From the NCBI GenBank assembly GCA_944381535.1, contig CALWLN010000019.1, positions 1 through 34,357 of the forward strand: DNA of 34,357 bases, in the 5' to 3' direction. Shown here one piece after another: positions 3,592 to 30,338 of this stretch (the first letter of the stretch is position 1; each line of letters opens with the position of its first letter). The notes under the pieces are model-generated. The model had not been told where the DNA came from. It was given only the letters and a program-made list of their open reading frames with translations, and searched no databases. The stretch is from an uncultured Lachnospiraceae bacterium. GTDB lineage: Bacteria > Bacillota > Clostridia > Lachnospirales > Lachnospiraceae. The translations under genes were made by a program, and so were the position numbers.

Positions 3592-5133
3592 AACCCGTTC
3601 CCAGTTATAACGCTCCTTATAGGTCAGCGGAGCCGAGGCCTTTGCGATTGCCAGATTTACCAAATCATAGGGAATGTCTCTCCCATCCCATATGCAGGGC
3701 AGCAGCCGCTTGCTGATTTCCCCATATAGCCTTTTCCCGTTCTTGATGGTCAGCATTCCTCTTGTCTCCGAGCCATACAGAATATCGGCAATATCCCTGA
3801 CCCCCGGAACCCCGTAATAACGCTTTCTCTTTCCCTCCTTCCATTTTTCCTGTATCCAGCCGCACCGGTCATGCCATTTTTCAATATTTGTTAGATATCT
3901 GGCCGTATCCATGGTCTTGTACTCGGCCAATGCAAGACGTCCGGTTGTCGCCGCGTCAAATGCAAGCAAAATCATTCTGGAGGTGTTCTCTACCCGTTTT
4001 CGATAACCCTCTAAAGCCTGGTAAAATTGTTTCGCAGTGGTGGGATTTCCATCCGAACTGCTTTCCTCCTCCGGTTCTTCCTCCACAAATTCATCCGTAA
4101 ACAGGCTGTTTTCCACTTCCTCCTCTGCCAGGGGCTCTTCCTCCTCCACTCCTGCGCTCACGGTCTCCGTATCCACGCTCCACAAGGGCATTTTGACGGA
4201 ATTGGATTCCCATGTCACCATCATTAAAGTATCAAAGCTCTGCCCCTGTTTTCGGATAATCCACTTTAAGGCATTGTGTATTTTTTGAGAGGTCTCGCCT
4301 CCAATGGAAAATGCCTGCTCCTTGTTTGCAAAGCGCCCCCGGTAGGTGAATCCCGTCTCGTCGTTGGAGGAAATCAGTTTCGCGCCATCTCCTTCATTTC
4401 TTATTTTTTTTGAGTGAAGATAAGACGGCGTCTCCTGTCTTCCGGTCAGATAATCCAGCACTTTATTCCCCTGTATTGAACGGTAATATTCCACAAAACA
4501 TTGCTGAAGAGTCCTGTCCTTCCAGCAGGCATCCTCCCCTATTTCCTCCAACACCCCGGCCCTAACAATAAAACGCACAAAGGCTTTACTCTGGTCCACA
4601 TTCTTCATCTTTACCTTCGGGTCCAACATGCCATCTTCATCCAAAATCAATACATTGGCTTTCACCAAATCCTGTATTAAAGTTTGTTTTTTCAGATAAG
4701 AATATATGGCGTCCACCTTTGAATGGGTATATGGTGACAAATGCCATTGTTCCAGTGCCTGCATATAGCGTTCATAGCACTCTTTGGCGTCACCCTTTTT
4801 CCCATTCACGTATCGATCATAATCGCCTGCCAGGTATTGTAAATTGTCACACAAGGGATGTGGTTCTTTTCCCGCTGTTCTGCTTCCCGACTTTTCCGTC
4901 ACGGGAATGATCGTCATTTTATCTTCCTCATCTACCTGTGAGGCTCTCAGAAAAGTTCCCTCTTCATCAATGGTTACCTCTATCTGCGCAGCTACTGTTG
5001 TGTGAAAGGGCGGCAGCAATACATAGGGAATCCGTTCCTCCCCATTTTTTGTCTTATACCTTTTATATTCTACTTTTCCTGCCAGTCCGCTGTTTTTTTC
5101 ATACAAATCCAGCAAATCCTCTTCCCAGCTCAA
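3142..5133 (-). CDS. cas8c: Type I-C Cascade large subunit Cas8c (Csd1)
   Basis: Cas8c is the large subunit that recognises the PAM and, through its C-terminal helical part, contacts the non-target strand. The 663-residue protein starts MSWEEDLLDLYEKNSGLAGK, with the Csd1 N-terminal signature followed by KRYKTKNGEERIPYVLLPPF. A strongly acidic linker (about residues 330-365) divides the N-terminal and central parts. The start is TTG, overlapping the cas5 stop by four bases (TTGA), with GGAGG seven bases upstream. Type I-C systems are known to make Cas11 from an internal start near the 3' end of cas8c; a candidate is listed separately. Closest neighbours in the complex are Cas5 and Cas7. Confidence 0.96.
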   Translation of the reverse strand: MSWEEDLLDLYEKNSGLAGKVEYKRYKTKNGEERIPYVLLPPFHTTVAAQIEVTIDEEGTFLRASQVDEEDKMTIIPVTEKSGSRTAGKEPHPLCDNLQYLAGDYDRYVNGKKGDAKECYERYMQALEQWHLSPYTHSKVDAIYSYLKKQTLIQDLVKANVLILDEDGMLDPKVKMKNVDQSKAFVRFIVRAGVLEEIGEDACWKDRTLQQCFVEYYRSIQGNKVLDYLTGRQETPSYLHSKKIRNEGDGAKLISSNDETGFTYRGRFANKEQAFSIGGETSQKIHNALKWIIRKQGQSFDTLMMVTWESNSVKMPLWSVDTETVSAGVEEEEPLAEEEVENSLFTDEFVEEEPEEESSSDGNPTTAKQFYQALEGYRKRVENTSRMILLAFDAATTGRLALAEYKTMDTARYLTNIEKWHDRCGWIQEKWKEGKRKRYYGVPGVRDIADILYGSETRGMLTIKNGKRLYGEISKRLLPCIWDGRDIPYDLVNLAIAKASAPLTYKERYNWERVLTLACSFVKKYRFEKKKEEWNVALDTNCTDRNYLYGRLLAVADRIEYRTFNKENDSGRITNAKRYMSTFSQRPFETWKVIEENLQPYLGKLPIIERRYYENLIDSICQLFEVSSFQENTKLDGLYLLGFHSQSFDLKNYKKEESDREEN

Positions 5134-5867
5134 TCCGCCACCTCCTCCCCGGTAAATTCCTTAAGCCCGGAAAAATTCTGCCCGCCAAACTGCTTCACGC
5201 TCATTTCTTTCACGAAGCGTTTTTCCGTACATTCCTCGGGGCGGATAAACTCAATGATTCCTCCCGTTTTCATCACGGGCCGCCAGAAATTCACCGTCAT
5301 CTTGTTTTTTTCTTCCGGAAGAACCGCCTCGTCCGCATAAGTAATTCCATGATACATAAATCCATAAGAAAGCTCTCCCGGCATGGAATCATAATAGCTT
5401 TGGCCCTCCCCGAACGTACAGGGCTCCACAAAGGCCTGGCAGTCTCTCGTTCCAAGGAAAATATCCCTGCGCCCGCCTCTGTTTACCATGCGTTTCGCAA
5501 TGTTATGGTGCTTATGCTCGTTCCTGTCCGCCTCCAGCTCCGGGTGGTTCGGATTAAATTCAAAATGCGCCCGCACCTGATAGCATACATCCTTTAAATA
5601 GGTATAATATGCCAACTCATTTCCTCCGTTGTAAACCAGGGGACGCACCCCCTTGGTCTCGGTCTGAATCGGTCTCATAACACGCACCGCGTCAACAATC
5701 CACATCAGCGTGGGTTTCCAATAGATACTTTCCACAATTCCTTTCAACGCTTCATAGGTGGGGATATGGTAGCTGCTTTTTTCTCCTCCCACCCGCGTCA
5801 CCGGGTCAGCAAACAACGCGTACTTTCCATATACTTCAAATTCGATTGTGTTTCTGTATTTTTCCAC
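5130..5867 (-). CDS. cas5c: Type I-C crRNA-processing protein Cas5 (Cas5d)
   Basis: In type I-C, Cas5 replaces Cas6: it cuts pre-crRNA below the repeat stem and then caps the 5' handle in Cascade. The 245-residue protein has the conserved N-terminus (EFEVYGKYALFADPVTRVGG). A Tyr-Lys-His set is likely catalytic: Y49 (SIYWKPTLMW) and K119-H120-H121 (NEHKHHNIAKRM), comparable to the residues mapped in Bacillus Cas5d. The start is GTG, with AGGAGGTG upstream. It lies 18 bases after the cas3 stop, and its stop overlaps the cas8c start. No separate cas6 is present, as expected. Confidence 0.96.
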   Translation of the reverse strand: MEKYRNTIEFEVYGKYALFADPVTRVGGEKSSYHIPTYEALKGIVESIYWKPTLMWIVDAVRVMRPIQTETKGVRPLVYNGGNELAYYTYLKDVCYQVRAHFEFNPNHPELEADRNEHKHHNIAKRMVNRGGRRDIFLGTRDCQAFVEPCTFGEGQSYYDSMPGELSYGFMYHGITYADEAVLPEEKNKMTVNFWRPVMKTGGIIEFIRPEECTEKRFVKEMSVKQFGGQNFSGLKEFTGEEVAD

Positions 5868-5885: not shown

Positions 5886-8351
5886 CTAAAAATTCAGAAA
5901 CTGTCTGTTCGGTGTCTCATTCACCCCCGTTTCGGAATCATAATAATCTTTATTTAAAACTAAAATGTTTCCTTCGCTGATATATTCAATAGCATCTCCC
6001 AGCTTCTCCTTCATCCACACGGAAATACCTACCGTAAAGCGCTGCAGCCGTCTTAAAATCATTTTCTGCTCAGAAATGGTCTGTCCACCCTTCTTCAGCT
6101 TGGCAATGTCTTCTTCTGCCTTCTCATTATAGGGAACCACAACTGTTATCTTCCCATCCTCCGGTATTACTTCAAACTTTTCCCCGGCGGTCTTAAACGC
6201 TTGATTTAGATATTTCGGGCAATCTTTTTTATGGTATCTTCCATACTGCCTTATTCCCATCGTATTCTTCCCTAGCAGGTCTATGAGATTGGTGCCAACA
6301 CCATCCTCAATTTCCACCGGATATTTCGTTTCGTCCTTATCCAACTCATGATAAAGAAGGCGATAATATCTCCTGACCGAATACTGCGAATCCAGGCTTC
6401 CCTGAAATTGCTCCGGTTCCTGCCTGAATTCATCCAGCAGTTTTTCACAGGCTCTCTGGGCCTGCCTTATCTCATACAGCGGCTTTCCCAGCCGCTCTGC
6501 CTCTTTTGACATCTGTATGATATACACTTTTCCTGGCTTATCATTCTCCTTATGCCGATTGCAACGCCCGGCCGCCTGGATGATACTGTCCAGCCCGGCA
6601 AGGGCACGGATGACACAGCCAAAGGAGACGTCTACCCCCGCCTCTATCAGCTGTGTACTGACGCAGATAAGCTTCTTTTTATTCGGCACATTCTCCTTAT
6701 CCTCCAGCATTTTCCTTATTTCGTTCAGCTTATCACTTCGATGCTCCGGACACATATTGGCACTCAGGTGGTATAGCTCATATTCGTCCCCACCTTCTTT
6801 TTTCAAAGCCTCGTATAAATTTTTCGCCGCTGTTTTGGTATTCATGATCACCAACACGCTGTCACATTCTTCGATAGAATCCAGGGTAAACCTTGCCGTC
6901 TGTTCGATATTCATTCCACCGGGAACAAGGTCTCTTGTATCCTCAATCTCCACCCGCCGGAACGCTTCCATATATTGATGGATATCCCCTGCCATTTCCT
7001 GGCATTTCAGAATGTTGTTTTCTTCCCGTTCCGCCAGGGATGGCTGAGTTGCGGAGCACAGGACCACCGTCGTATTGCAGAACTCCGTAAGGAAATTAAC
7101 GGCCAGTGAAAAGAGCTCCGTACACTTTAGCGGAAACGCCTGCACCTCGTCAAAGATGATCACACTGTTGCACAGGTTATACATGCGGCGGATACTGCTC
7201 TTTTGCCCTGAAAATAAGGTGTTCAGCATTTGAACCGCTGTGGTGACGATAAACGGACAGTCCCATCTCTCCGTCAGCTTTTTGTAATTCTGTTGTTTTT
7301 CCTCCTCCTCATACACCACATTGCAGTGATGTTCCAAGACATTGCCTTCACTTCCCACGGCTTTTCGAATTTCTTCCGCGTTTTGCTCCAATATGGAATT
7401 AAACGGCGCCACATAGAAAATATGCAGCTTCTCAAATTCCTTCGCATGGTGCAGGGCAAATCGCAGGCTGCTTAACGTCTTTCCCGCCCCGGTGGGAACC
7501 GTCAGACGATACAGCCGCTCTCTTAATCTCGAAGTTTGATAGCATAAATCCGATATTTCACGCCGGTAACCATCCAGGAGGCTTTTTTCCTTTTTTGAAA
7601 TAAGGCGTTCCATACGTTTATCAAAATTCAAAATCATCTCAGTCCAAATCCGTTTGCTCTGCTCTTTTGTTATTCTTTCCGGCAGCGGCCTGTCTTCTGA
7701 AAAGCTTGCGGAATCAGTCCAGTCACTGTCTATCAACACGGAGATCAAAAGCCGCTCATACATTCCCAGGAAAAAGTCTGTACTCCCATATTTTCCTTCT
7801 TCTCCGTATCTGACGGCCATTGCTTTAATGCTTTTTTGTATCTTCTGCACATCCTGGTGCGCCTTCAAAAGCCATTCTGTCAGAACTTTTTTGTCGCAGA
7901 TACTGAAATATCTTTCTTCTGCCGTTTCAAAGGATATGTCCCTCTCCCGGCGAATTTCTGAAAGGGTTTTCCCGGTAGCCATATCGATACAATCCTGAAG
8001 TCCATGGTGGGAATAGACGGCAGTTGCCACTATCTTGGAAACCAGCGCACCTTGGGCAATATTTTCCGCAATTCTGCCACCTGCTGTTGCATGGTCTATC
8101 TGCTGCCGATATGCATCTTCCCCTTTCTCCAGTATTTCCTCCATATACTGCTGAAATTCCGGTCTGAGCTTTCCTGCGTCATGCAGGACGGCTATCACCT
8201 CGGCTAAATATTTCAGACAATCCAATGGACAGATGTCCTTCGTAACGCTAAGCGTATTGCTTAAATGTGTTTTTTCATTTTGGGTTCTTTTTGATTGTGG
8301 CTCTACATGGGCGCGGTAGATATCTTCTTTTAGAAAAATATTCTTTTCTAT
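5886..8351 (-). CDS. cas3: CRISPR-associated helicase-nuclease Cas3 (non-standard ATA start)
   Basis: Cas3 is recruited by Cascade and shreds target DNA with an N-terminal HD nuclease and an SF2 helicase. Numbered from the ATA at 8351 it has 821 residues. HD ligands are H29 (KTHLSN), H57-D58 (VLHDAGK), H87 and H115/H116 (VYSHHGLQD). The helicase has PTGAGKT (286-292), DEVQ (401-404), CSATQP and QAAGRCNRH. The first ATG/GTG/TTG in frame is a TTG at 8225, which would remove 42 residues including H29 and the conserved YRAHVEPQ segment. Upstream of it the frame stays open to a TAA near 8425 with no ordinary start. A good AAGGAG (8361-8366) stands nine bases before ATA, suggesting ATG has become ATA. 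Start confidence is low; gene identity is certain. Confidence 0.93.
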   Translation of the reverse strand: MEKNIFLKEDIYRAHVEPQSKRTQNEKTHLSNTLSVTKDICPLDCLKYLAEVIAVLHDAGKLRPEFQQYMEEILEKGEDAYRQQIDHATAGGRIAENIAQGALVSKIVATAVYSHHGLQDCIDMATGKTLSEIRRERDISFETAEERYFSICDKKVLTEWLLKAHQDVQKIQKSIKAMAVRYGEEGKYGSTDFFLGMYERLLISVLIDSDWTDSASFSEDRPLPERITKEQSKRIWTEMILNFDKRMERLISKKEKSLLDGYRREISDLCYQTSRLRERLYRLTVPTGAGKTLSSLRFALHHAKEFEKLHIFYVAPFNSILEQNAEEIRKAVGSEGNVLEHHCNVVYEEEEKQQNYKKLTERWDCPFIVTTAVQMLNTLFSGQKSSIRRMYNLCNSVIIFDEVQAFPLKCTELFSLAVNFLTEFCNTTVVLCSATQPSLAEREENNILKCQEMAGDIHQYMEAFRRVEIEDTRDLVPGGMNIEQTARFTLDSIEECDSVLVIMNTKTAAKNLYEALKKEGGDEYELYHLSANMCPEHRSDKLNEIRKMLEDKENVPNKKKLICVSTQLIEAGVDVSFGCVIRALAGLDSIIQAAGRCNRHKENDKPGKVYIIQMSKEAERLGKPLYEIRQAQRACEKLLDEFRQEPEQFQGSLDSQYSVRRYYRLLYHELDKDETKYPVEIEDGVGTNLIDLLGKNTMGIRQYGRYHKKDCPKYLNQAFKTAGEKFEVIPEDGKITVVVPYNEKAEEDIAKLKKGGQTISEQKMILRRLQRFTVGISVWMKEKLGDAIEYISEGNILVLNKDYYDSETGVNETPNRQFLNF

Positions 8352-8425
8352 CTTAGTCGTCTCCTTTTGTGTGTTTTGTATATATTCATGTGATTCTTTT
8401 ACATATTTTTGTTTCCTTTTGTATT

Positions 8426-8454
8426 ATCGTATCATACGAATTGCGTTTTTTCAA
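8426..8454 (-). promoter_or_regulatory. Promoter of the cas operon
   Basis: On the minus strand TTGAAA (8449-8454, 5/6) and TACGAT (8426-8431, 4/6) are exactly 17 bases apart, and a TG one base before the -10 gives an extended -10. Predicted transcription begins near 8419, about 68 bases before the ATA start of cas3. The -35 box overlaps the left arm of an inverted repeat (8453-8462). Confidence 0.65.
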
Positions 8455-8498
8455 GTCATAGCACACAGAAACGGTCCGGTTTCAATGCGCTATGACTT
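8453..8498. repeat. 10-bp inverted repeat over the cas -35 box and the end of the DUF3892-like gene
   Basis: AAGTCATAGC (8453-8462) and GCTATGACTT (8489-8498) are perfect inverted copies separated by 26 bases. Inside the spacer GAAAC/GTTTC can pair too. The left arm covers two bases of the cas -35 box; the right arm lies in the last codons of the upstream gene. It could be an operator for the cas promoter or a transcript-end hairpin; there is no U-run after it on either strand. Confidence 0.55.
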
Positions 8499-8748
8499 TT
8501 AGATTATCCTGTCTTGTGTCATTGTCTTCAGATCTGACATATCTTTCTCCGTAGATACTCTTGGCAGGTATCAAATTCGGATACGGATAAATGTTTACCT
8601 GTATGGTATTTGGGTTTTGAAGCAGATAATCGTGGAGCTGTTCTTTTTTGTGGTAGATTCCTGTAACGTCCAGTAAAATGGAGTCAATCTCCTGTACGTT
8701 ATTAGACTCTGTACAGCCCCGCTTCATTTTGATTTTTGTTGCCTTCAT
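8482..8748 (-). CDS. Small DUF3892-like protein
   Basis: An 88-residue protein of unknown function. Its end, ERYVRSEDNDTRQDNLKVIA, resembles the tail of the DUF3892 family, where a Tyr-[VL]-Arg-[ST] segment is followed by Asn-Leu a few residues later. The N-terminus MKATKIKMKRG also fits a beta strand starting that fold. No signal peptide or membrane segment is seen. The ATG has AAGGA nine bases upstream. The stop lies only 28 bases before the cas -35 box, so read-through into cas3 is possible. Family assignment is by eye and moderate. Confidence 0.6.
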   Translation of the reverse strand: MKATKIKMKRGCTESNNVQEIDSILLDVTGIYHKKEQLHDYLLQNPNTIQVNIYPYPNLIPAKSIYGERYVRSEDNDTRQDNLKVIAH

Positions 8749-8845
8749 GCTCTTTCATCCTTAAATTAAAATGTTGTGCGTCTTTCTTCCCAACGAACAA
8801 AATTAATGTTTGCGGAAAAGTTGCGCTGTTTTTAGGCGGAAAGCA

Positions 8846-8874
8846 TTGACAATTGGATAGAGAAAAGATAAAAT
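8846..8874 (+). promoter_or_regulatory. Near-consensus plus-strand promoter without a gene
   Basis: TTGACA (8846-8851, 6/6), a 17-base spacer and TAAAAT (8869-8874, 5/6) form one of the best promoters in the window, pointing right. No plus-strand reading frame with a ribosome binding site follows before 9240. An imperfect inverted repeat (8850-8864 with 8893-8907) brackets the -10 box. Confidence 0.6.
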
Positions 8875-8880
8875 AAGTTT

Positions 8881-8962
8881 TGCGAAAAGTATATCTCTAT
8901 TCAATTTGAGGTAGCTTTCCTTCCCCTCTGAGATTTGCCGATCTTGGAGGGGATTTGTCCTT
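8881..8962 (+). ncRNA. Candidate small RNA upstream of the cas operon
   Basis: A transcript from the promoter at 8846-8874 would start near 8881. It would contain a strong hairpin at 8922-8953: arms TCCCCTC..AGAT and ATCT..GAGGGGA with a 2x2 internal mismatch and a six-base loop, followed by TTTGTCCTT. The whole 8749-9238 gap holds no convincing coding frame. No known RNA family was recognised. Transcription and ends are inferred. Confidence 0.35.
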
Positions 8963-9008
8963 ACATCAATAAAATACCATAATAGTAATATTTTGTCAAT
9001 ATTTTTTT

Positions 9009-9044
9009 AATATGCAACAATGTAAATTTATATTGTTGCATATT
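9009..9044. repeat. 13-bp perfect inverted repeat in the AT-rich gap
   Basis: AATATGCAACAAT (9009-9021) and ATTGTTGCATATT (9032-9044) are perfect inverted copies around a 10-base AT spacer. This is the size and symmetry of a dimeric regulator's operator. It is flanked by T-rich sequence but lacks a GC-rich stem, so a terminator is less likely. Confidence 0.6.
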
Positions 9045-9197
9045 TATATTTTAGAAATACAAGCATTAACATATTGCCTTGAAATACGACATTTTCTCTA
9101 TACTATCTTGTACCTTTTTGAAAAATATGTTAGATTATTTCTGTCAGGATTTTTAATTCTGTGAGTTGAAAAACATTTTTGCTTATTAATATTTGTG

Positions 9198-9234
9198 AAA
9201 AGGCGGCTGTCTTACAAACAGTCGCCTTTTTCTC
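9198..9234 (-). terminator. Rho-independent terminator of the HEPN/MNT operon (bidirectional)
   Basis: AAAAGGCGGCTGT (9198-9210) pairs with ACAGTCGCCTTTT (9218-9230) across a seven-base loop, with one mismatch. A T-run follows on both strands. It begins a few bases after the stop of the HEPN gene and could also end a plus-strand transcript from 8846. Confidence 0.85.
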
Positions 9235-9238
9235 AATA

Positions 9239-9646
9239 CTACATTCTACCCTGGATATACTTCTTCACCTCTCCGATCACTTCTTCGGCCGTTGCCACCT
9301 GTTCAACCGCTTCCTCTTTACTGGCAATATAAAAATCATCATAATCACTTTTATGGCGTATCACCTCTAACCTTGCCAGCTTACGGCCAATATCTTTGGA
9401 AAAAATATCCGTGTGAACATAATTTTTATTAAAATAAGCCAACGTATCCTTATGCCTTTTAAACGCTTTCGGCTCTAATGCTAAAACAGCGTCCACCGCA
9501 TGAAAACATGCATAGTACGCTCTGTTATTTCCTGCTTTATATTTTCCGGCTTCCAAAAGTATTTTCGCCGATTCCAAATCATCTATAGCCTGTTCCAGCT
9601 TATATTTAGCAACATCCTGATAATTCCCTGTCCGTTCTTTTTCCAC
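9239..9646 (-). CDS. HEPN-domain protein (partner of the nucleotidyltransferase)
   Basis: A 135-residue all-helical HEPN protein. Typical segments are YKLEQAIDDLESAKILLEAG in the first helices, then NNRAYYACFHAVDAVL, and near the end EVIRHKSDYDDFY. In HEPN/MNT modules the HEPN member is usually the toxin and the nucleotidyltransferase its antitoxin. Here the usual RNase motif R-x4-6-H is replaced by R-H-K-S-D-Y, as in the HEPN branch that keeps a DY pair, so RNase activity is doubtful. The start is GTG, sharing one base with the stop of the nucleotidyltransferase gene (TAGTG), so the two are translationally coupled. A terminator follows. Confidence 0.85.
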   Translation of the reverse strand: MEKERTGNYQDVAKYKLEQAIDDLESAKILLEAGKYKAGNNRAYYACFHAVDAVLALEPKAFKRHKDTLAYFNKNYVHTDIFSKDIGRKLARLEVIRHKSDYDDFYIASKEEAVEQVATAEEVIGEVKKYIQGRM

Positions 9647-9975
9647 TATAGCTCCACACCTTCTTCTTCCACATTTTTATAAAACATATACGCATTTTTC
9701 CAGTAATTAAAATGATCAACGTTCAGAACAACAGGCATAATCTCCGTCTGGTTCTCCCAGTTAAAATCATAGGTGATATCAGATACCTTATTCTGATACT
9801 GCTCCATTTGCGCCTCATCCAGGTCAACCAGTATCATGACGTCTATGTCAGAGTCATTTCTAAAATCACCCCTTGCATAAGAGCCAAATAAAATAATCTT
9901 TTTAATATGGGATTCGGATACAGACTCTAACTTGTCCCGATACTGTCTTAATAACTCCTCCATATTTTTCGACAT
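9646..9975 (-). CDS. Minimal nucleotidyltransferase (MNT-type, probable antitoxin)
   Basis: A 109-residue minimal nucleotidyltransferase of the pol-beta superfamily. The core motif GSYARG (31-36) is followed by NDSDIDVMI with the metal-binding D43 and D45. In characterised HEPN/MNT pairs the MNT protein AMPylates the HEPN partner and silences it; that role is inferred here. The frame is open 13 codons further upstream, but the ATG at 9975 has AGAGGTG seven bases before it and gives the family N-terminus MSKNMEELLR. It lies 57 bases downstream of the Fic stop. Confidence 0.85.
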   Translation of the reverse strand: MSKNMEELLRQYRDKLESVSESHIKKIILFGSYARGDFRNDSDIDVMILVDLDEAQMEQYQNKVSDITYDFNWENQTEIMPVVLNVDHFNYWKNAYMFYKNVEEEGVEL

Positions 9976-10032
9976 CAGATACACCTCTTTTCTATCTACT
10001 CTACAAAATAACATTACACACAGACCGACCCG

Positions 10033-10818
10033 TCAGCGAATGATTCTCCGGCCTCCGGTACCGTCACGATAACCGGCTTTCCTGCAAATCTGCTTTTTCC
10101 ATGTCTTTTCCGTCTGTTCCCTCAGAAAATCAAGAAGAGGACGAAGCTCCTGTCTGATATCCCAGGCCTCCAGCGCGTCGTAGTAAAATTTTCGATCCTC
10201 CTCATGGATTGTCACAGGCGGGTGATTGTGCATCACCAAAAAATAATTCATTGCCAACCGGCCGGTGCGCCCGTTGCCATCCGCAAAGGGATGAATATTT
10301 TCAAATTTTGCATGAAAATACGCCGCAGCTATGAAAGCATCTTTGTCTGAGACTTCCTTTAACTCTGTCAGCAATTCGGCCATTTCTTCCTGCACGTCCT
10401 CCGGCGGGGCTCCGATTTCTTCTTTTCCGGTTACATAATCGTGATGCTTATATTCTCCGGGTCGTTCCCCCAACTGCCATCTGCGTATATCATAGGTATT
10501 CCGGGTCAAACGCTTTTGCATTTTCTTGATGAGTACTTCATCGAAAGGCCATTTTTCACGAAATGCAATCAAAAACAGTTCATAGGCATCTTTCTCGTTA
10601 CGAATCTCAAACAATGTTCGCAAATCCCCGGTATAAGATGTTACACCGTCATGCTCAAAAATTTCTCTGGTATCATGATAGGTAATATTATCATTTTCAA
10701 TTTTGCCGGAATGATAAGCAAAGGCAATACTGTGTCCGTTCAGCACTTCCGCAAGCTCAGCGTCTGTGGTTATCCCTTTCTCTTGCCACCAGCTAACGAC
10801 TTTCTCGTAATCGGTCAT
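10033..10818 (-). CDS. Fic-domain protein with N-terminal inhibitory helix
   Basis: Fic proteins transfer AMP, or other phosphate-containing groups, to target proteins. The 261-residue protein carries the full catalytic motif HPFADGNGRTGR (176-187). It also carries an inhibitory-helix motif S-x-x-x-E-N at 37-42 (SGKIEN), whose Glu blocks ATP binding in self-inhibited class II Fic proteins. Both parts are intact, so a regulated AMPylator is likely. No membrane segment is seen. The ATG has GGAGGG ten bases upstream. It precedes the HEPN/MNT pair on the same strand and may share its transcript. The target cannot be inferred. Confidence 0.9.
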   Translation of the reverse strand: MTDYEKVVSWWQEKGITTDAELAEVLNGHSIAFAYHSGKIENDNITYHDTREIFEHDGVTSYTGDLRTLFEIRNEKDAYELFLIAFREKWPFDEVLIKKMQKRLTRNTYDIRRWQLGERPGEYKHHDYVTGKEEIGAPPEDVQEEMAELLTELKEVSDKDAFIAAAYFHAKFENIHPFADGNGRTGRLAMNYFLVMHNHPPVTIHEEDRKFYYDALEAWDIRQELRPLLDFLREQTEKTWKKQICRKAGYRDGTGGRRIIR

Positions 10819-13174: not shown

Positions 13175-14515
13175 CTACACTTTTTCTTCCTTGCGAGAAT
13201 GAAATATATACGTCCCAATAGAATGAGCCTCTGCTGTGGTCTTCACGATCTTTCCCTGGATACTGAAGAAAAAGGGAATCTCATCTTCTGTGGTATTGAG
13301 CACAATGGAAACAATGCTTCCATCCGGATTTTTGAAAGAAACAGTGCCAATGGCAGAAGTCCATTTGCTGCTTCCGATCCTCTTCGCTCCCTTTTTCACA
13401 TACCTGCTGAAATGACCGATGTAATAATAGGAATCATGGACATATAATGTATCGTTCTGCGTATCCGCCATGATGGGCGCATCGCAATAATTTCCCACAT
13501 GATTCGGCCCACCCTTTTCATCCAGCAGCAGATTCCAGTCGCAGAACATATTGCAGTAATTGTTGAAATTGCCAATCATATCGTGAGCGTACTTTTCACC
13601 GATCTTCACCGTGTCCTGGGCTCCAAGGCTGTACTCATAGCATCCCTCTGAAAAGACAAGAGCTCTGTCCGGATATAATCTGTGAAACATTTCCAGCTGT
13701 TCAAAATGATCGCCGCTGTACCAGTGAAACGCGATTCCATATATATATTTTCCCGCTTCTTCATCTCCCAGCATGACCCTGGATCTTGAGATCACACGCT
13801 CCTTGTTATGATCCCAGAACATAATCTTGACACCGATTTTTTCCATTTTGGGGCCGAGATAATTTTTTACAAAATCCCGTTCCTCTTCAGCGGTATAGAC
13901 GCAGGAATCCCATGGCTGCACTGCCTTCGGCTCATTCTGAACCGTGATTCCCCAGATATCGATGCCACATTTCCGATATTCCTCAATAAATTTCACATAA
14001 TACTCTGCCCATAACTCAAAGTATTCCTCTTTCAGCTTCCCGCCCCGATTCATCTGCCCGTTTGTCTTCATATAAGCAGGTGGACTCCAGGGGGAGGAAA
14101 AGATACAGATATCGCCATAGGCCATGGCTTCCTTAATCATGGGAATCACAGAACCTTTGTCGCGCTCAATATTAAAACTCTCCAGGGTATCGTCATTTTC
14201 CTCCACGCAGGAATAGTTCCCCAATGAAAAATCGCAGCTGTTCATATGAATCCGTCCCAGGTTATATCCGATTCCCTCCACAGGATCAAAATAAAGCTTT
14301 AAGACCTTTTCACGATTCTCGCTGCCAAGCTTGTCCAGGGTGGTGGAGGCGGCCTCCGTAAAGGCTCCTCCAAAACCCTCAATCTCCTGGTATTCGATAT
14401 CCGGGAAAATATTGATCAGCCTGCCTTCCTCTCCGTTATCTTCTGTAACAACAGCCTCCTGCATTTCCTGCATTGGCTTGCAGCCTTTGATTGTCTTGAT
14501 TACTTTTACATTCAT
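13175..14515 (-). CDS. Glycoside hydrolase family 30 enzyme (cytoplasmic)
   Basis: GH30 enzymes are retaining beta-glycosidases (beta-glucosidase, beta-1,6-glucanase, beta-xylosidase or glucosylceramidase types). The 446-residue protein shows the TIM-barrel hallmarks EIEGFGGAFTEA, LGRIHMNSCDFS and FSSPWSPPAYMKTNGQM. The acid/base E195 is in VQNEP and the nucleophile E290 in FSEGCYEY. A C-terminal beta-sandwich (NPDGSIVSIVLNTTEDEIPF) completes the usual architecture. There is no signal peptide, unlike many family members, so it should work on imported sugars. GAGGAG stands nine bases before the ATG. Substrate specificity cannot be decided from sequence alone. Confidence 0.92.
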   Translation of the reverse strand: MNVKVIKTIKGCKPMQEMQEAVVTEDNGEEGRLINIFPDIEYQEIEGFGGAFTEAASTTLDKLGSENREKVLKLYFDPVEGIGYNLGRIHMNSCDFSLGNYSCVEENDDTLESFNIERDKGSVIPMIKEAMAYGDICIFSSPWSPPAYMKTNGQMNRGGKLKEEYFELWAEYYVKFIEEYRKCGIDIWGITVQNEPKAVQPWDSCVYTAEEERDFVKNYLGPKMEKIGVKIMFWDHNKERVISRSRVMLGDEEAGKYIYGIAFHWYSGDHFEQLEMFHRLYPDRALVFSEGCYEYSLGAQDTVKIGEKYAHDMIGNFNNYCNMFCDWNLLLDEKGGPNHVGNYCDAPIMADTQNDTLYVHDSYYYIGHFSRYVKKGAKRIGSSKWTSAIGTVSFKNPDGSIVSIVLNTTEDEIPFFFSIQGKIVKTTAEAHSIGTYIFHSRKEEKV

Positions 14516-14524
14516 AGAAAATAG

Positions 14525-14561
14525 CTCCTCTTTTATTTTCGCTGCCCTCCCGGTTCACCGG
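14525..14561 (-). repeat. Intergenic scar made of two pieces of the GH78 gene region
   Basis: Bases 14525-14546 match 15594-15615, the sequence just after the GH78 stop, at 21 of 22 positions. The adjoining 14541-14561 match 16368-16388, inside the GH78 gene, at 20 of 21. The two matches meet at an eight-base direct repeat, GGCGGCGA, present at both places in GH78. This is what an internal deletion of a second GH78 copy would leave. It now provides the ribosome binding site of the GH30 gene. Confidence 0.6.
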
Positions 14562-14570
14562 CATCCTGTT

Positions 14571-15581
14571 CTACTCCGATACCGCCAGCGCAATAAAACG
14601 CTCGTTCTGATCGTTTACCGCACAATAAAAATGGTAATTCTTTCCGTTATATCTGATAAACCATGGCTTATGGGCATGGCCATTTTCAAAAGGATACTCG
14701 CTCTTTACAAGCGGTTCTCCTTCCCACACAGTCCAGTTGGCAAGATCTCTGGAGCAGGCAAACGAATCATACGCCGCTTCACAGTTCCGAGACCCGTAAT
14801 ACAGCATCACATAGATATCGCCGATCAGGATGATCTGCGGATCCGCGACGGTGGTTCCCTGACCATTGCTGATAAGGTCCAAAACTGCATGTTCCCCGTA
14901 CCGTTCCCAGTGCTCTCCATCCTCCGAAACCGCCAGAAAAATACGCTCCCCGTTATCCTCGCCTTTGGCATTGTATACATTCACATAGGGATAACCCGTT
15001 GTATTCAAGGGATCCCGAAACATAAAGCTCTTATAGAGCGTTTTCCCTTCATATGGCCTTGCATCCACGTCCTCCGGGCGCAGGATCGGCTTAAGAAACC
15101 GTTCAAAAGAGGCCGGATCCACCGGATCCTTTGTCTTTGCCAATCCCATATACAACGGATCCGGCTCATAACCATCGCTGTTTCCTGCAAGATAGGGAAT
15201 ATAATAGTTCCCGTTAAGCTGTTCCAGTCTTCCCCCGCCTTCATATGCAATGTCAAGAAATGACGCGTATCCTGCACACTGCTTGCTGTCCCACCGGTCA
15301 AGCTCATTGCGTTTCAATATCTTTCCCACATACGTCCAGTGAATCAGATCCTCGGATCTTGCCAGGTGCGTCTCATACCCTGACACAGACACATCCTTGG
15401 AAATCGATATAAAGTACATATAGAATACGCCGTCCTTCTGAAATACGGTTGCACTGTCCGTAAAGTCATTCTCCCATTTCACAACAGGCCCCAGCTTCTT
15501 CGGCGTTTTGATCTTCTCATAAATCTCTTTCATCTCGTTTGCAGTTACCTGAAGGCATCTGCTTTGTTTAAAAGGTATCAT
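14571..15581 (-). CDS. Five-bladed beta-propeller glycosidase, GH43/GH117-like
   Basis: A 336-residue, signal-less protein built of propeller blades. Typical strands are DFTDSATVFQKDGVFYMYFI near the start, then YLGLAKTKD-like and SFMFRDP, TVADPQIILIGDIYVMLYYG, and HAHKPWFIRYNGKNYHFY at the end. The repeated pattern of an Asp or His followed by an exposed aromatic strand matches the GH43/GH32/GH117 clan, which includes arabinosidases, xylosidases and galactosidases. I cannot name the family with certainty. GAGGAGG precedes the ATG. It sits between GH78 and GH30, so it probably trims a side chain of the same imported oligosaccharide. Confidence 0.75.
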   Translation of the reverse strand: MIPFKQSRCLQVTANEMKEIYEKIKTPKKLGPVVKWENDFTDSATVFQKDGVFYMYFISISKDVSVSGYETHLARSEDLIHWTYVGKILKRNELDRWDSKQCAGYASFLDIAYEGGGRLEQLNGNYYIPYLAGNSDGYEPDPLYMGLAKTKDPVDPASFERFLKPILRPEDVDARPYEGKTLYKSFMFRDPLNTTGYPYVNVYNAKGEDNGERIFLAVSEDGEHWERYGEHAVLDLISNGQGTTVADPQIILIGDIYVMLYYGSRNCEAAYDSFACSRDLANWTVWEGEPLVKSEYPFENGHAHKPWFIRYNGKNYHFYCAVNDQNERFIALAVSE

Positions 15582-15614
15582 CTTCTCTTATTCCTCCTCT
15601 TTTATTTTCGCCGC

Positions 15615-17885
15615 CTATCGCTCAAGGTCCACAATATCCTTCCACTTTCCTGTCTCCACCTGACAAACAACGCCATCCGGGCAATCTACCGCAAGACAGA
15701 TCCGGCCATTCTCCCGTTTCCAGGAAACGGCTACCTCTCCCGCCGGAAGACAATGGCTGGCCTTCACATCGTTCAACGCTTCGATAAACTCCGGCCGGAT
15801 CACCACATGGGTGCTGTCCGTCACCCGGATACCTCCCGGATAACGCATAAACCACTGCACCACGTCCCCCAGAAAATGATGGTTCTGTGACATGGTCCAC
15901 TTCCGTTCATCGGACAGAAACTGTTCCGGCAGGGTGGTAGCGCCCTGCTCCACCAGATACCCGTAGGCCGGGAATTCCTTTCCCATAATCATCCGCCAGG
16001 CCAGCTCTGCCTCCCCGTATTCCGCCAGCACATGGTACAGCACCCGCGTTCCCAGGAATCCGCAGGTCAGCTTCTCCCCATCACGCTTAAGGATCTCAAG
16101 AAGCCCGGCAAAGGCTTCCGGCTTCTCGTCATCTGCGAAAATACCGTAATACAGTCCCATCGCCTGGGCCGTCTGGCAGGCACTCTCGATCACCATGGTA
16201 TCCCGGTCAATATACCGGCTGCGCACTGCCGCAAGAAGCTCCTCTCCGAGCTGTTCGGCAAAGGCTGCGTGACCGTCAAGGCCCAGGGCATGGAACATCG
16301 TCCGTCCCTTGCAGCACATATCATATACCATCACGCTGTCCGTGAATCCCAGGGGAGCCTGATAGTCGCCGCCCTCCCGGTTCACCGGAACCCAGTCGCC
16401 CAGACCAACGGCAATCAGCCCTTCCCCGTTCCGCCGTCTGCCGATGTATTCCAGATAGCGCAGCATGGCATGGGCATTCTCTTCGATCACCGCCGTCTCT
16501 CCCCGGTATTTCCAGATACAGTAAGGAAGCTCGAACAGCACCCGGTCCCAGGCCGGCCCACTGCCCCAGTCATAGCCCCAGGTATCCGTTGGAACAATAC
16601 AAGGGAGCTTTCCGTCCTCCCGCTGGGCGCAGCGAAGATTACAAAGCCACTCCCGATAGCTCTTCTCCACGCCCATGGTCAGGATCATATGCTCTGCGGA
16701 AGCGTTCGCGTCCCCGGTCCATCCGTTCTTCTCCCGGTGGGGGCAGTCCAGCGGAAAATAAATGAAATTAGAGATATCGCTGCGTCTTGCCATCTCATAG
16801 ATCTTATTGGCCGTCTCATCCGAACAGGAAAAGGTCCCCCGTTCCGTAAGATCTGAACTCACCGTGAGATAGGTGAGAAGCTCGGGCGTAGCCTGCTCCC
16901 TGGTAATTCCAGACACATAGAGATAGCGGAATCCATGACAGGTGAACATGGGCTCAAATATTTCCTCATTCTCACTGCCCACAATATAGATATCCCGCTG
17001 GGCGTAGCCGTCCGGATAGTAATACATATTCCCGTAATACACCGCGCCGTCCCGCAACGTCTCCGCGCACTGGATATCCACGCGCTGCCCCGGCCACCCC
17101 TTGATCTTCAAGCGGAAGATACCGGTATTATTCTGCCCGAAGTCGTAGATATAACCGCCGGTCCGCACAGGGGCCTGCTCTACTGTATCCCGGCCGCCCA
17201 GCGCCTCTGTCACATCTGGCTTGGCCGCATAATCCGCCAGCTCACCGGGCCAGACTTTCACCGGCTTTAATTCTCCCGTGACAACCACCGGCTCTGCCAT
17301 ACACAGCTTCGCCCGCCCTCTTGGCGGATCTGCAGGAATCGGGCTGTGCCAACTGTCATCCTCCGCAAAGCCCGGAAGCTTCCACCTCTCCGGCTCCAGC
17401 CGCTTGTCAAAAAATATACCGTTTCTATAGTCATTGAACACGACAGGGCCTTTCCGGCACAAAAAGTCCGGTGCCTCCCACTCCTGTCTCTCTTCCTCAT
17501 CTTCCACTGCAACATGAACTGCAAGCTTTGGCGCAGAGCGAAACACATTCTGTGAAAAATCCCATACATGCGTTTTACAGTTTAAAAAACCGTCTCCCAG
17601 CATAATGGCGATCACATTTTCTCCCGGTTGCAGATATGGCGCAATATCATACCTGTCATAATATAGGATGTGATCCGGATTAGATACATAAGGGGCCAAC
17701 AGTCCCTTGGTGATCTTCCTGCCATTGAGGAACAGATCATAGAAACCGAGACCGCAAATGACGATCTCGGCTATGCGCACCTCCCCATGCACCGCAAAAT
17801 TTTTGCGGAACATGGGTGCAGCCACGTGTTCGGTATAGGAGGAATACTCCCGGCACTCACTGACAAATCTCTTTGAAAATATCAT
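15615..17885 (-). CDS. Alpha-L-rhamnosidase, glycoside hydrolase family 78
   Basis: GH78 enzymes release terminal alpha-L-rhamnose by inversion. The 756-residue protein has two N-terminal beta-sandwich domains (FRKNFAVHGEVRIAEIVICG, then YIYDFGQNNTGIFRLKIKG). The (alpha/alpha)6 catalytic domain carries the signature DCPHREKNGWTGDA at 380-393. D380, E385, W389 and D392 align with the active-site residues known from Bacillus RhaB, and a later Glu in GATTLPEQF fits the general base. NHHFLGDVVQWFMRYPGGI near the end is also typical. No signal peptide, so it is cytoplasmic. AAAGGAG precedes the ATG. Its presence implies the imported glycan contains rhamnose. Confidence 0.93.
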   Translation of the reverse strand: MIFSKRFVSECREYSSYTEHVAAPMFRKNFAVHGEVRIAEIVICGLGFYDLFLNGRKITKGLLAPYVSNPDHILYYDRYDIAPYLQPGENVIAIMLGDGFLNCKTHVWDFSQNVFRSAPKLAVHVAVEDEEERQEWEAPDFLCRKGPVVFNDYRNGIFFDKRLEPERWKLPGFAEDDSWHSPIPADPPRGRAKLCMAEPVVVTGELKPVKVWPGELADYAAKPDVTEALGGRDTVEQAPVRTGGYIYDFGQNNTGIFRLKIKGWPGQRVDIQCAETLRDGAVYYGNMYYYPDGYAQRDIYIVGSENEEIFEPMFTCHGFRYLYVSGITREQATPELLTYLTVSSDLTERGTFSCSDETANKIYEMARRSDISNFIYFPLDCPHREKNGWTGDANASAEHMILTMGVEKSYREWLCNLRCAQREDGKLPCIVPTDTWGYDWGSGPAWDRVLFELPYCIWKYRGETAVIEENAHAMLRYLEYIGRRRNGEGLIAVGLGDWVPVNREGGDYQAPLGFTDSVMVYDMCCKGRTMFHALGLDGHAAFAEQLGEELLAAVRSRYIDRDTMVIESACQTAQAMGLYYGIFADDEKPEAFAGLLEILKRDGEKLTCGFLGTRVLYHVLAEYGEAELAWRMIMGKEFPAYGYLVEQGATTLPEQFLSDERKWTMSQNHHFLGDVVQWFMRYPGGIRVTDSTHVVIRPEFIEALNDVKASHCLPAGEVAVSWKRENGRICLAVDCPDGVVCQVETGKWKDIVDLER

Positions 17886-17918
17886 GATTTACTCCTTTAT
17901 CAATTTCAGGCCGCCACA

Positions 17919-20900
17919 TTACTTAAATTTTTTTCTACAGCCAATCGCCAGACCACCGCCTGCTAATACCAGGCCAAGCATACCGGCAATCGGTGTAGTA
18001 TCACCTGTTTTCGGTGTTGTTGCGCCGTTTGATGTGCTTTCCGATCCCGTCTGCGGTTTGTTGTCTGTGGCAGTATCGTTATCTGTTGGTTTATCTTCCC
18101 CTGGATCATCTGTGAATACCAATACCTTATCCAGCCAATCCACAATCTTTGTCGCATTGCTCTCCTGCAGGAATTTTTTTACCGCATGGGTAATACCCGG
18201 GAATAATTCTAACGTCGTATTGGAATTCCCAGTTGCCTTTACCAGAGCTTCATACAGTCTCACACTGTCCCGATAATCCACTTCGTTATCCGCCATACCA
18301 TGCTGTAAATAGAATGCAGGCGCATCCTTCTTCACATGATTCAGTGGGCTTGAATCCCTGACAATATCCATATTTTCAGCATTGGAGCCCAGCCAGTTCG
18401 GGCGGTATTGCGCATTACGATCCGTTGCCAGATCGGTAATTGCATACCAGGAAACAACCGCCTGCACTTCACTGGAGTATTCCGCGTTGCCCATGGATAA
18501 ATCTTCATATGCCGGATCGCCATTGGTAGTACCTACAAAGTCAGCGATACATCCGCCCGCAGATTCACCCCAGATCGCAATATTCGCAGAATCCAGATTA
18601 TATTTTTCTGCGTTTGCCCTCAGATAACGGATTGCCGCCTTTACATCATAAACGGGTTCCGGAAAATGCCCTTCCGGATGGCAGCGGTAATCTACCATTG
18701 CAACCGCATAGCCGCGTTCTAACGCCTTTAATGCGCCTTCTGCTGTATACAATACCAGATTACCCGCAGAGTTCCCGCCGCCAAATCCGCCGCCGTGTAT
18801 AAATACTACTACCTTATACGGCTTCTCTCCTTCTTCCGGAAGGACAAGATGAAGCTTCTGGGTTGGGGACTGGGTCGCATACTGTAATCCAATATATTTA
18901 TTTTTATATCCTGACAGATCTACATTCCCATAATTTGGACGTCTGTTTTCATCCGAGTCAAGATTTTCTTCGGGATGGAACCGTTTTTGCAGGAAATTCA
19001 TGGCTGCTTTTATCGTCTCTGCACTGTTCCATGCATCATGATGGGCATGTGGCGCATCTTCCGGGAAATAAGTATCTACCAATTCCGGATCTATATTCTC
19101 CTTCAGCTTTTCCGCCAGCGTAATCGATTGCTCACATCCCACTAAAGTATCATTTTTTCCATGTCCAACGAACATTGGCACCGTGTTGGAAGACACATAG
19201 GTAATCGGGCTGACTGCCAAAGCCTGCTCCGTCGTATAGTTATCCCCCAGCAGCATAGTGGTCGGATCTTTCCCATTTCCAATAATATTAACCAGATCCA
19301 TGGATTGATCCCAGGTACTTACATCGGAAATACCATACATGGATACAACTGCCTGAACATCGCTGGAGATTTCCGCATTGCCCATGGAAAGGTGCTCAAA
19401 TTCAGGATTCCCATTGGTAACGCCCATCATCTGAACTAAATGCCCACCGGCGGAACATCCCATGACGGCGATCTGCTCCGGATTCAGGTTGTATTTTTCC
19501 GCATTGGCGCGAATGAAACGAATCGCAGCTTTACAGTCATAGATCTGTGCCGGCCACTGCGCGTTTTGAGCCAGACGATAATTCACGCGCACGACAGCGT
19601 AACCATTCGCCAGCGCTGCAGCTAAAGTACCGCCAAGCTCTTCATCTGTTTTATCCCCGATCACCCATGCCCCGCCATGAATGAATACCAATACCGGTAC
19701 CGGCCCCGACATCTTTTCCGGCAATTGAATATCTAAGGTTTGATAAGGATCATTGCTGCCATCCACGTAAGAAACATCTGTCAGATTACCGATCCTGTCA
19801 TGATGTTCCCCAAACGCAGTCTGATAAACAACCTGACCATATACGCGTGCCAGATAATCATTTGGATGATTAATATTATTTCCTGTCATATCCCGAAAAG
19901 ATTTTTTCTCTATCAACGCTCTATGCATTGCTGTCATATTCGCAACAACAATTCCTTCCTGTTCCATGGCTAACATTGGCTCTTCATATGCTTCGTGCTC
20001 TCCCCGTACCCCCGGAGCGTCCGAATTGGGCAGCGTAGTGGAGACCAGGACGATTTCACAAGCCGGATTTTTGGCATGGATGGCATCTATCATTGCCTGA
20101 AGATTCGCCACATATTCTTTTGCGGAGCGTTGTCCGCCGTCATTCATTCCAAATGCGAGAACAGCCAGATCCGGATCATGAGCAATGACACGTTCTGTAA
20201 TATTCTGAACTCCCCAGCGCGTATCCTTCCCGGATAATCCGGTGTTTACTTCCGTGATATTGGAAAATGGATAAGCTTTTTTCAAATACTCCGTCACTAA
20301 GACAGACCATTTCGGCATATAGGGCGCTGTATTTACAAAGCCGGATGTATTATATCCCTCGGTGATGCTGTCACCGTAAAATACAATCTTTAAGTCCTGC
20401 CTGTTTTCCAAACGCTGGATCGTTTTGGGCAACAGACTTGATTTATCAACCGGTTTTTCTCCTTCCCAGAAATCGGAATGTTGGTAGGTAACATAAATCT
20501 GCCGTGTTACAATTCCTGTTCCCTCTTCCCAGTAAACATATCCGCCGTTTCCATCCGAAAACTCACCGTTGGAAGGATGATAGGTATCGTAAGAAGTAAC
20601 CGGAATACCGGAACCTTTTGGAATACGCAGTTTTCCATCTGCTAAAATATAGTCCTTTCCCTGCTGATAGGTAACCGTGCGGGCCAGATTCTGGACAGAT
20701 AAAATCCTATCTGCACGGTACAACAGCGGGATATCCTTTACCGTCCCATCCTGCTCCGCTACCGGCCATACACTTTCCTCGTAAGCGGTCGTACCTTCCC
20801 ATACCTGTTCCATATAGGATTCCGGAACGTCGCTTACAGCATCCGCTGCCGGAACGGCATAATCCCATTTCGTGGTATCAAGAAAATCAAATTCATCCTG

Positions 20901-23520: not shown

Positions 23521-23558
23521 CTAAGACATCCTCGTTCTTTTTTGTTATGTAAAAGAGC

Positions 23559-23590
23559 CTCTCCTGTAGCATTCCATACCTACAGGAGAG
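23559..23590 (-). terminator. Intercistronic hairpin (attenuator or mRNA-end element)
   Basis: CTCTCCTGTAG (23559-23569) and CTACAGGAGAG (23580-23590) form a perfect 11-bp stem with a 10-base loop, 14 bases after the stop of the CBM9-like gene. On the minus strand GCTCTTTT follows, a weak U-run. It probably reduces expression of the enzymes downstream relative to the transporter and surface genes, or protects the upstream mRNA. Confidence 0.65.
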
Positions 23591-23604
23591 ACATCTTTTC
23601 CACC

Positions 23605-28483: not shown

Positions 28484-28498
28484 CCGCGTCCTCCTGCT

Positions 28499-30313: not shown

Positions 30314-30338
30314 TTTATAATCCGCCTTTCTTCTCCTC

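What the first reader, a model, noticed from the sequence alone, without database searches (positions are those of the whole stretch)
8225..8425. cas3 lacks an ordinary start codon: ATA sits where ATG should be
The Cas3 frame continues 42 codons upstream of the first usable start (TTG at 8225). It codes the conserved N-terminal HD segment (YRAHVEPQ and the first metal-ligand His, H29). The only ribosome binding site (AAGGAG, 8361-8366) is nine bases before ATA (8349-8351), and a TAA closes the frame near 8425 with no ATG, GTG or TTG between. Either ATG has mutated to ATA, sharply lowering Cas3, or ATA is really used. Low interference with intact adaptation and Cascade could be selected, for example to limit self-targeting.
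Basis: partly seen in the sequence, partly recalled or inferred. Interest (0 to 1): 0.7.

Follow-up and report, generated by a model that had tools for sequence, protein, structure and literature searches.

The report
Cas3 gene with non-ATG start codon
The DNA-shredding gene (cas3) of this bacterial CRISPR immune system has no ordinary start signal and most likely begins at the weak codon ATA; several related bacteria also appear to use ATA, ATC or ATT there, so this looks like a kept brake on the nuclease rather than a fresh defect.

Summary
The type I-C cas3 frame has no ATG, GTG or TTG between its upstream stop (8424-8426) and TTG 8225. AAAGGAG plus nine bases leads to ATA 8349-8351, and that frame encodes the invariant HD histidine H29. 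A recent ATG-to-ATA loss gets little support, because relatives also lack well-placed ordinary starts. Of 103 cas3 genes, 3 have no ordinary start codon in the span searched and 9 have only ATA/ATC/ATT behind a strong Shine-Dalgarno site; for 267 other cas genes of the same loci the counts are 0 and 1. Six species share ATA at one aligned position. [Clostridium] symbiosum ATCC 14940 has only ATT. The trait needs at least four changes on the tree. infC of the same genome has ATT behind its Shine-Dalgarno site. Published reporters show that clostridia and S. aureus initiate at AUA/AUU, mostly below AUG levels. Best reading: AUA is the real start and sets Cas3 output at translation; IF3 dependence is further inference. 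No expression evidence exists. No close orthologue shares the window's exact site, and in five of the six ATA species a GTG or ATG inside the Shine-Dalgarno site is a rival start.

The parts
8349..8351 (-). ATA, proposed start codon of cas3
   Evidence: In frame, 9 nt after AAAGGAG; no ATG/GTG/TTG in frame from TAA 8424-8426 to TTG 8225
8361..8367 (-). AAAGGAG, Shine-Dalgarno site of cas3
   Evidence: Best pairing energy -11.63 kcal/mol in my stacking model, aligned spacing 8 to ATA
5886..8351 (-). cas3 (HD nuclease-helicase), 821 residues if read from ATA, plus stop
   Evidence: TIGR01587 and TIGR01596 above cut-off; Pfam Cas3_HD and Cas3-like_C_2
8265..8267 (-). Codon for H29, first HD histidine, lost if TTG 8225 were the start
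   Evidence: His in 123 of 131 rows, gap in 8
8223..8225 (-). TTG, first ordinary start codon in the frame
   Evidence: lies inside the HD domain
8424..8426 (-). In-frame TAA that bounds any upstream start
8426..8454 (-). Promoter-like TTGAAA-17-TACGAT before cas3, would give a leader of about 65-70 nt
   Evidence: Consensus match only; 11 such sites in 8200-9300 on both strands against 3.8 expected
8348..8389 (-). 13-codon ORF in the other frame whose TAG overlaps ATA (ATAG); probably chance
   Evidence: Read; no Shine-Dalgarno site seen before its ATG
5130..5867 (-). cas5c
   Evidence: TIGR01876
3142..5133 (-). cas8c (csd1)
   Evidence: TIGR01863
2287..3141 (-). cas7 (csd2)
   Evidence: TIGR02589
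1626..2300 (-). cas4
   Evidence: TIGR00372
598..1629 (-). cas1c
   Evidence: TIGR03640
292..582 (-). cas2
   Evidence: TIGR01573
24..120 (-). Two CRISPR repeats (24-55, 89-120) with one complete spacer; the array is cut by the contig end

Best explanation
cas3 is translated from the AUA codon at 8351-8349, directed by the Shine-Dalgarno site AAAGGAG nine bases upstream. AUA is a near-cognate start, read by initiator tRNA less well than AUG, so the first gene of the shared cas operon is made at a lower rate than its message would allow while the downstream Cascade and adaptation genes use ordinary starts. Cas3 genes of this part of type I-C show the same solution repeatedly (ATA, ATC or ATT), so it is probably a maintained translational brake on a nuclease that is needed in few copies and can be harmful. 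Shown by sequence: no ordinary start, a well-placed Shine-Dalgarno site, the HD histidine in frame, recurrence in relatives, a coding pattern that begins at the shared ATA. Inferred: actual initiation at AUA, reduced yield, selection for it, and sensitivity to IF3 as is known for infC.
For: No ordinary start before the HD histidine and an AAAGGAG at good spacing. Survey of 103 cas3 genes: 83 have an ordinary codon with Shine-Dalgarno energy of -7 kcal/mol or better, 3 have no ordinary codon at all (window, L009, L111), 9 have only ATA/ATC/ATT with -8.5 or better; controls cas5, cas8, cas7, cas4, cas1 together 1 of 267. Over seven threshold pairs cas3 scores 5-9 of 103 and controls 0-1 of 267. 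Six species (L007, L037, L038, L041, L142, L144) have ATA at codon -19 from the AH histidine, 6 of 6, although ATA is 50 of 262 Ile codons in the rest of these genes and third positions vary in 17 of 19 codons after it; codons -40 to -24 vary in 17 of 17 at every codon position, as non-coding DNA would. [Clostridium] symbiosum ATCC 14940: TGA, seven codons, then ATT CTT GCG CAT behind AAAGGGGGG; the next ordinary codon lies after the HD histidine. Tree: fewest changes 5, at least 4 forced by well-supported branches. infC of the same genome has ATT behind TGGAGGTGC. Literature: infC, ccpN, citZ AUA and cvfC1 AUU in S. aureus (PMC13009471, passages); AUU/AUA/AUC starts work in clostridia (PMC9680021, passages).
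Against: No expression data of any kind. The window's ATA (14 codons before the AH histidine) has no orthologue at the same distance; its sister on the tree, L036, has ATG codons, and own-genus genomes (5 others of 6 searched) hold no close cas3. In 5 of the 6 ATA species a GTG (L007, L037, L041, L142) or ATG (L144) sits three codons before ATA inside the Shine-Dalgarno site and could be the start. For L009 and L038 the scoring rule picked a different ATA/ATT from the codon I propose. L007 and L042 were assigned by hand and not by the rule. Most cas3 genes (83 of 103) have ordinary starts, and the cas3 relatives of L111 in its own genus (L159-L161) have ATG. Control genes are internal operon genes, not first genes. 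Thresholds were set after a first look.
Confidence: 0.7

Rival explanations
1. A recent single-base change turned an ordinary ATG into ATA in this strain, so Cas3 is nearly lost and the system is decaying or limited to adaptation and binding.
For: ATA is one change from ATG; the Shine-Dalgarno spacing fits; the sister row L036 has ATG codons.
Against: The rest of cas3 is intact with HD and helicase motifs conserved; the other cas genes are intact by profile; relatives recurrently lack well-placed ordinary starts. No relative has ATG at the matching distance.
Confidence: 0.13
2. In the six ATA-sharing relatives the real start is the GTG or ATG three codons before ATA, so those genes have ordinary starts and do not support the case.
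For: GTG in L007, L037, L041, L142 and ATG in L144 at that place.
Against: That codon is part of the Shine-Dalgarno site (AGAGGTGATT and variants); best pairing for any ordinary codon is -2.4 to -6.7 kcal/mol against -8.7 to -16.7 for ATA in these five; L038 lacks it. The window, L009 and L111 have no such codon.
Confidence: 0.2
3. Cas3 translation enters from the 13-codon ORF in the other frame (8389-8348), by frameshift or by stop-restart at ATAG.
For: The ORF's TAG overlaps ATA; L009 also has a short ORF in the same relative frame whose stop overlaps an ATA (read by eye).
Against: No Shine-Dalgarno site seen before its ATG, no classic slippery heptamer seen, and the stop sits at different distances from the HD domain in the two loci; no such ORF is needed at L111.
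Confidence: 0.04
4. Sequencing or assembly error at 8349.
For: Draft genome of 241 contigs, 93% complete; no reads to check.
Against: The pattern recurs in independent assemblies, among them records whose titles do not mark them as MAGs (Anaerostipes sp. 992a, Clostridium sp. chh4-2, [Clostridium] symbiosum ATCC 14940).
Confidence: 0.05
5. Translation starts at TTG 8225 and gives a Cas3 without the first HD histidine, a helicase with a dead or altered nuclease.
For: It is the first ordinary start codon.
Against: No Shine-Dalgarno site seen before it; the 42 codons upstream keep the conserved AH and HD residues, which would decay if untranslated.
Confidence: 0.02

Closest known systems
infC (IF3) with AUU or AUA start
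   Same: Near-cognate start behind a long Shine-Dalgarno site; infC of this genome has TGGAGGTGCAAGACC-ATT; S. aureus infC starts at AUA (PMC13009471, passages)
   Different: infC is a translation factor regulated by its own product (E. coli autoregulation: cited in that paper); cas3 is an immune nuclease and the near-cognate start is found in a minority of its family
ccpN (AUA) and cvfC1 (AUU) of staphylococci
   Same: Conserved near-cognate start with extended Shine-Dalgarno site; reporter output about 10% of AUG in poor medium, up to 30% for ccpN in rich medium (PMC13009471, passages)
   Different: Proven by Ribo-Ret and reporters there; only sequence evidence here
pcnB of E. coli (AUU)
   Same: Translation limited by a near-cognate start (title seen in a reference list; otherwise recalled)
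   Different: Different gene, phylum and no comparison made
Type I-C cas3 with ordinary start
   Same: Same protein, operon position and HD motifs
   Different: 83 of 103 surveyed genes have ATG/GTG/TTG with a Shine-Dalgarno site of -7 kcal/mol or better
cas11c made from an internal start in cas8c
   Same: Another case where start-site choice sets subunit amounts in type I-C (recalled; related passages on Cas11b and Cas11c seen in PMC11899642)
   Different: Internal start in cas8, not a near-cognate start of cas3

Membership tests
Type I-C CRISPR-Cas | cas5c, cas8c/csd1, cas7/csd2 with cas3, cas4, cas1c, cas2 | tested here: met
   Seven of seven proteins over the curated cut-off of their subtype or family model
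Type I-C CRISPR-Cas | CRISPR array next to the operon | tested here: met
   Two repeats 24-55 and 89-120, array cut by the contig end; no other exact copy of the repeat in the genome
Genes with a conserved near-cognate (AUA/AUC/AUU) start, infC-like | No ordinary start codon upstream of the conserved domain | tested here: met
   Window, L009, L111
Genes with a conserved near-cognate (AUA/AUC/AUU) start, infC-like | Shine-Dalgarno site at working distance from the near-cognate codon | tested here: met
   AAAGGAG, -11.63 kcal/mol, aligned spacing 8
Genes with a conserved near-cognate (AUA/AUC/AUU) start, infC-like | The near-cognate codon is kept across species | tested here: inconclusive
   ATA kept in 6 of 6 species of a sister group at its own position, but no orthologue of the window's own site at the same distance was found
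Genes with a conserved near-cognate (AUA/AUC/AUU) start, infC-like | Initiation at that codon shown by experiment | not testable with these tools
   Needs proteomics, profiling or reporters
Genes with a conserved near-cognate (AUA/AUC/AUU) start, infC-like | Output rises when IF3 is limiting | not testable with these tools
   Needs an IF3 titration
CreTA (CRISPR-regulated toxin RNA with a mini-ORF) | Degenerate repeats flanking a CreA gene near the mini-ORF | tested here: not met
   No further repeat match with up to 3 mismatches in the window (full repeat; its 16-base 3' part); highly degenerate repeats could be missed

The most novel reading that the evidence does not exclude
Near-cognate starts have arisen repeatedly in type I-C cas3 and are kept because they tie the making of the CRISPR nuclease to the state of the translation machinery: cells with little free IF3 relative to ribosomes would make more Cas3, so interference would be switched by initiation fidelity, in the same regulon as infC.
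Probability: 0.15. Interest if true: 0.85.

Novelty: new member of a known kind. Interest (0 to 1): 0.6.

Why it matters
If true, a class of CRISPR nucleases has its start codon outside the ATG/GTG/TTG set. Annotation tools that accept only those three would truncate these proteins inside the HD domain or call them broken. It would add CRISPR immunity to the few functions known to be held down by near-cognate starts, explain how a first-in-operon cas3 can be made in small amounts beside Cascade, and offer a direct test of whether interference is tuned through initiation. Six searches of the held library showed no paper on such starts of cas3; the library lacks most subscription journals.

Tried and rejected
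Close relatives in the window's own genus: 6 genomes searched including its own, none of the other 5 has a close cas3. First scans of genome contigs and viral contigs with the single protein confirmed nothing; the alignment query worked and viral contigs gave one distant locus. Plasmid and phage collections hold distant cas3 (101 and 6 records); their N-termini were not examined. Genus searches around relatives added two ATA loci (58 genomes, 14 matched) and otherwise only the centre itself or distant cas3 (4, 5, 8, 2 and 5 genomes).

A regulatory RNA in the leader: no Rfam match in the window, leader fold z -0.30. Frameshift or restart from the short ORF: considered, no support beyond the overlap. 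CreTA-like mini-ORF: suggested by a paper listing (passages), no repeat remnant found. Self-targeting: not tested, one complete spacer only.

Rows dropped before the count of 103: eleven copies of loci already counted (L001, L003, L048, L054, L092, L117, L118, L124, L141, L143, L156), and rows whose match does not reach the N-terminus or is cut there by a contig end. Of the 68 genomes with a match, only the 30 best loci were delivered; one search kept 80 of 451. The tree used 43 rows: those with 840 bits or more plus ten chosen rows (L144, L111 and canonical rows near L111).

Full report
What was checked. The cas3 frame on the minus strand is open from TAA 8426-8424 to 5886. It has no ATG, GTG or TTG before TTG 8225, and ATA 8351-8349 lies nine bases after AAGGAG 8366-8361. 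The locus is a type I-C system: Cas3, Cas5c, Cas8c, Cas7, Cas4, Cas1c and Cas2 all pass curated cut-offs. The frame before TTG 8225 encodes the AH motif and H29; H29 is His in 123 of 131 Cas3 rows and a gap in the other 8. So the upstream 42 codons are part of the protein, and a TTG start would cut the HD domain. That H29 is a metal ligand is recalled, not tested.

Relatives. The window is a whole contig of a draft genome with 241 contigs. In its own genus, 6 genomes including its own, no other close cas3 was found. In 397 genomes of the family, 68 had a Cas3 match at 1e-60; the 30 best loci were fetched. An alignment query in genome contigs kept 80 of 451 loci. A search of 58 genomes around L037 added L142 and L144. 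The closest rows are 55-60% identical, so every comparison is between species.

Starts in relatives. Read by eye: L041 AGAGGTGAT-TAAT-ATA; L142 AGAGGTGAT-TTCC-ATA; L007 GGAGTGAT-TATT-ATA; L144 GAGGGGATGATTATT-ATA; L037 GGGTGAG-ATAT-ATA; L038 GAAGGGATCATT-ATA; L039 GGAAAGGAG-TTATACT-ATC; L042 GGGAG-AAAAT-ATA; L009 GAGG-CGGTTGGA-ATC (least sure); L111 AAAGGGGGG-ATTAAAG-ATT. Between the in-frame stop and the AH motif there is no ordinary start codon in the window, L009 and L111. L038 has only a TTG 11 codons after ATA. L037 and L142 have only a GTG inside the Shine-Dalgarno site. L041 has that GTG and a TTG 11 codons after ATA. L144 has an ATG at that place and a TTG. L007, L039 and L042 have further ordinary codons with weaker pairing.

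Counting. I scored Shine-Dalgarno pairing with a simple stacking model for every in-frame codon up to 40 codons before a conserved N-terminal anchor. Of 103 cas3 genes, 83 have an ordinary codon at -7 kcal/mol or better, 3 have none at all, and 9 have only ATA/ATC/ATT at -8.5 or better (L009, L037, L038, L039, L041, L111, L142, L144, window). Controls from the same loci: cas5 0 of 112, cas8 0 of 43, cas7 0 of 60, cas4 1 of 50 (L066), cas1 0 of 2, together 1 of 267. Over seven threshold pairs the result stays at 5-9 of 103 against 0-1 of 267, Fisher p 2.9e-5 to 2.3e-3. The loci are related, so these p values overstate independence, and at one threshold pair L031 is also flagged. For L009 and L038 the flagged codon is not the one I propose. 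When all in-frame codons are ranked by pairing alone, the top codon is ordinary in 37, ATA/ATC/ATT in 9 and another codon in 57 of 103, so pairing alone does not name starts; the rule rests on pairing together with codon type.

Conservation. In L007, L037, L038, L041, L142 and L144 the codon 19 before the AH histidine is ATA in 6 of 6. In the 19 codons after it, variable columns by codon position are 11, 8 and 17; in the next 60 codons 25, 19 and 51; in codons -40 to -24 they are 17, 17 and 17 of 17. That is coding sequence beginning at or just before ATA. ATA makes up 50 of 262 Ile codons in these genes, so six of six would be unlikely for a plain Ile codon. The rival that GTG or ATG three codons earlier is the start in five of the six remains open; it lies inside the Shine-Dalgarno site and pairs worse.

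Tree. In a quick maximum-likelihood tree of 43 selected rows, eleven ATA/ATC/ATT rows need five changes, four of them forced by well-supported branches; shuffled labels need 9.9 on average, 0 of 500 as low. Nine of the eleven sit in a 14-row clade with the window. The tree cannot tell gain from loss. The window's sister L036 has ATG (support 89).

Physiology. In the same genomes infC was found in 13 of 13. The printed stretch shows ATT behind a GGAGG-like site in 9 of 13 loci (in 2 of these, L134 and L137, an in-frame ATG and GTG also lie in that site) and ATA in Ligilactobacillus (L129). Two loci reach it only in translation and one was missed by my motif. In the 9 ATT loci an ATG follows four codons later, farther from the Shine-Dalgarno site. 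In S. aureus, infC, ccpN and citZ start at AUA and cvfC1 at AUU, with about 10% of AUG output in poor medium and up to 30% for ccpN in rich medium (PMC13009471, passages). In Clostridium butyricum and C. sporogenes, AUU, AUA, CUG and AUC gave 5-20% of AUG in one leader, and all six alternative codons 40-100% in another, against 0.04-3% in E. coli; the authors note that one leader could make out-of-frame starts (PMC9680021, passages). So AUA is usable in this class of bacteria and the cost may be mild.

Mechanism. Most likely the 30S subunit is placed by AAAGGAG, initiator tRNA reads AUA with a third-base mismatch, and Cas3 is made at a fraction of the rate set by the message, while downstream genes keep ordinary starts. 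cas3 is first in the operon, so lowering it at initiation is a simple way to have few Cas3 and many Cascade subunits. The lower rate, the selective reason and an IF3 link are inferred.

Literature. Searches for cas3 with non-canonical, AUU, AUA or alternative start codons gave no paper on the subject. The one paper with both terms concerns a TTG start of cas4 in Francisella (PMC13034035, passages). The library lacks most subscription journals.

Verdict. It is a new member of a known kind: genes with near-cognate starts.

Noticed in passing
window 8452-8498 (-): Strong hairpin (14 pairs, one bulged base each side, then 5 pairs; -26.6 kcal/mol in a 66-nt piece, z -6.41) between the DUF3892 gene and the cas3 promoter-like site. 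It could be a terminator or a palindromic operator.
   Followed up: partly
window 8484-8748 (-): Small DUF3892 protein (PF13031) just upstream of cas3 on the same strand; a 75% identical DNA stretch lies on another contig of the genome (G000:C155).
   Followed up: no
window 9239-10014 (-): HEPN protein and nucleotidyltransferase pair (PF05168, PF01909; weak MntA match), a likely HEPN-MNT toxin-antitoxin next to the CRISPR operon.
   Followed up: no
window 10033-10818 (-): Fic/DOC family protein (PF02661).
   Followed up: no
window 13175-32376 (-): Polysaccharide-degradation genes: GH30, GH43, alpha-L-rhamnosidase, a 1358-residue protein with BD-FAE esterase and GDSL lipase domains, and an ABC transporter permease.
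   Followed up: no
L134 and L137 (infC loci): In two genomes infC has an in-frame ATG and GTG inside the Shine-Dalgarno site before ATT, the same ambiguity as in five cas3 genes.
   Followed up: no
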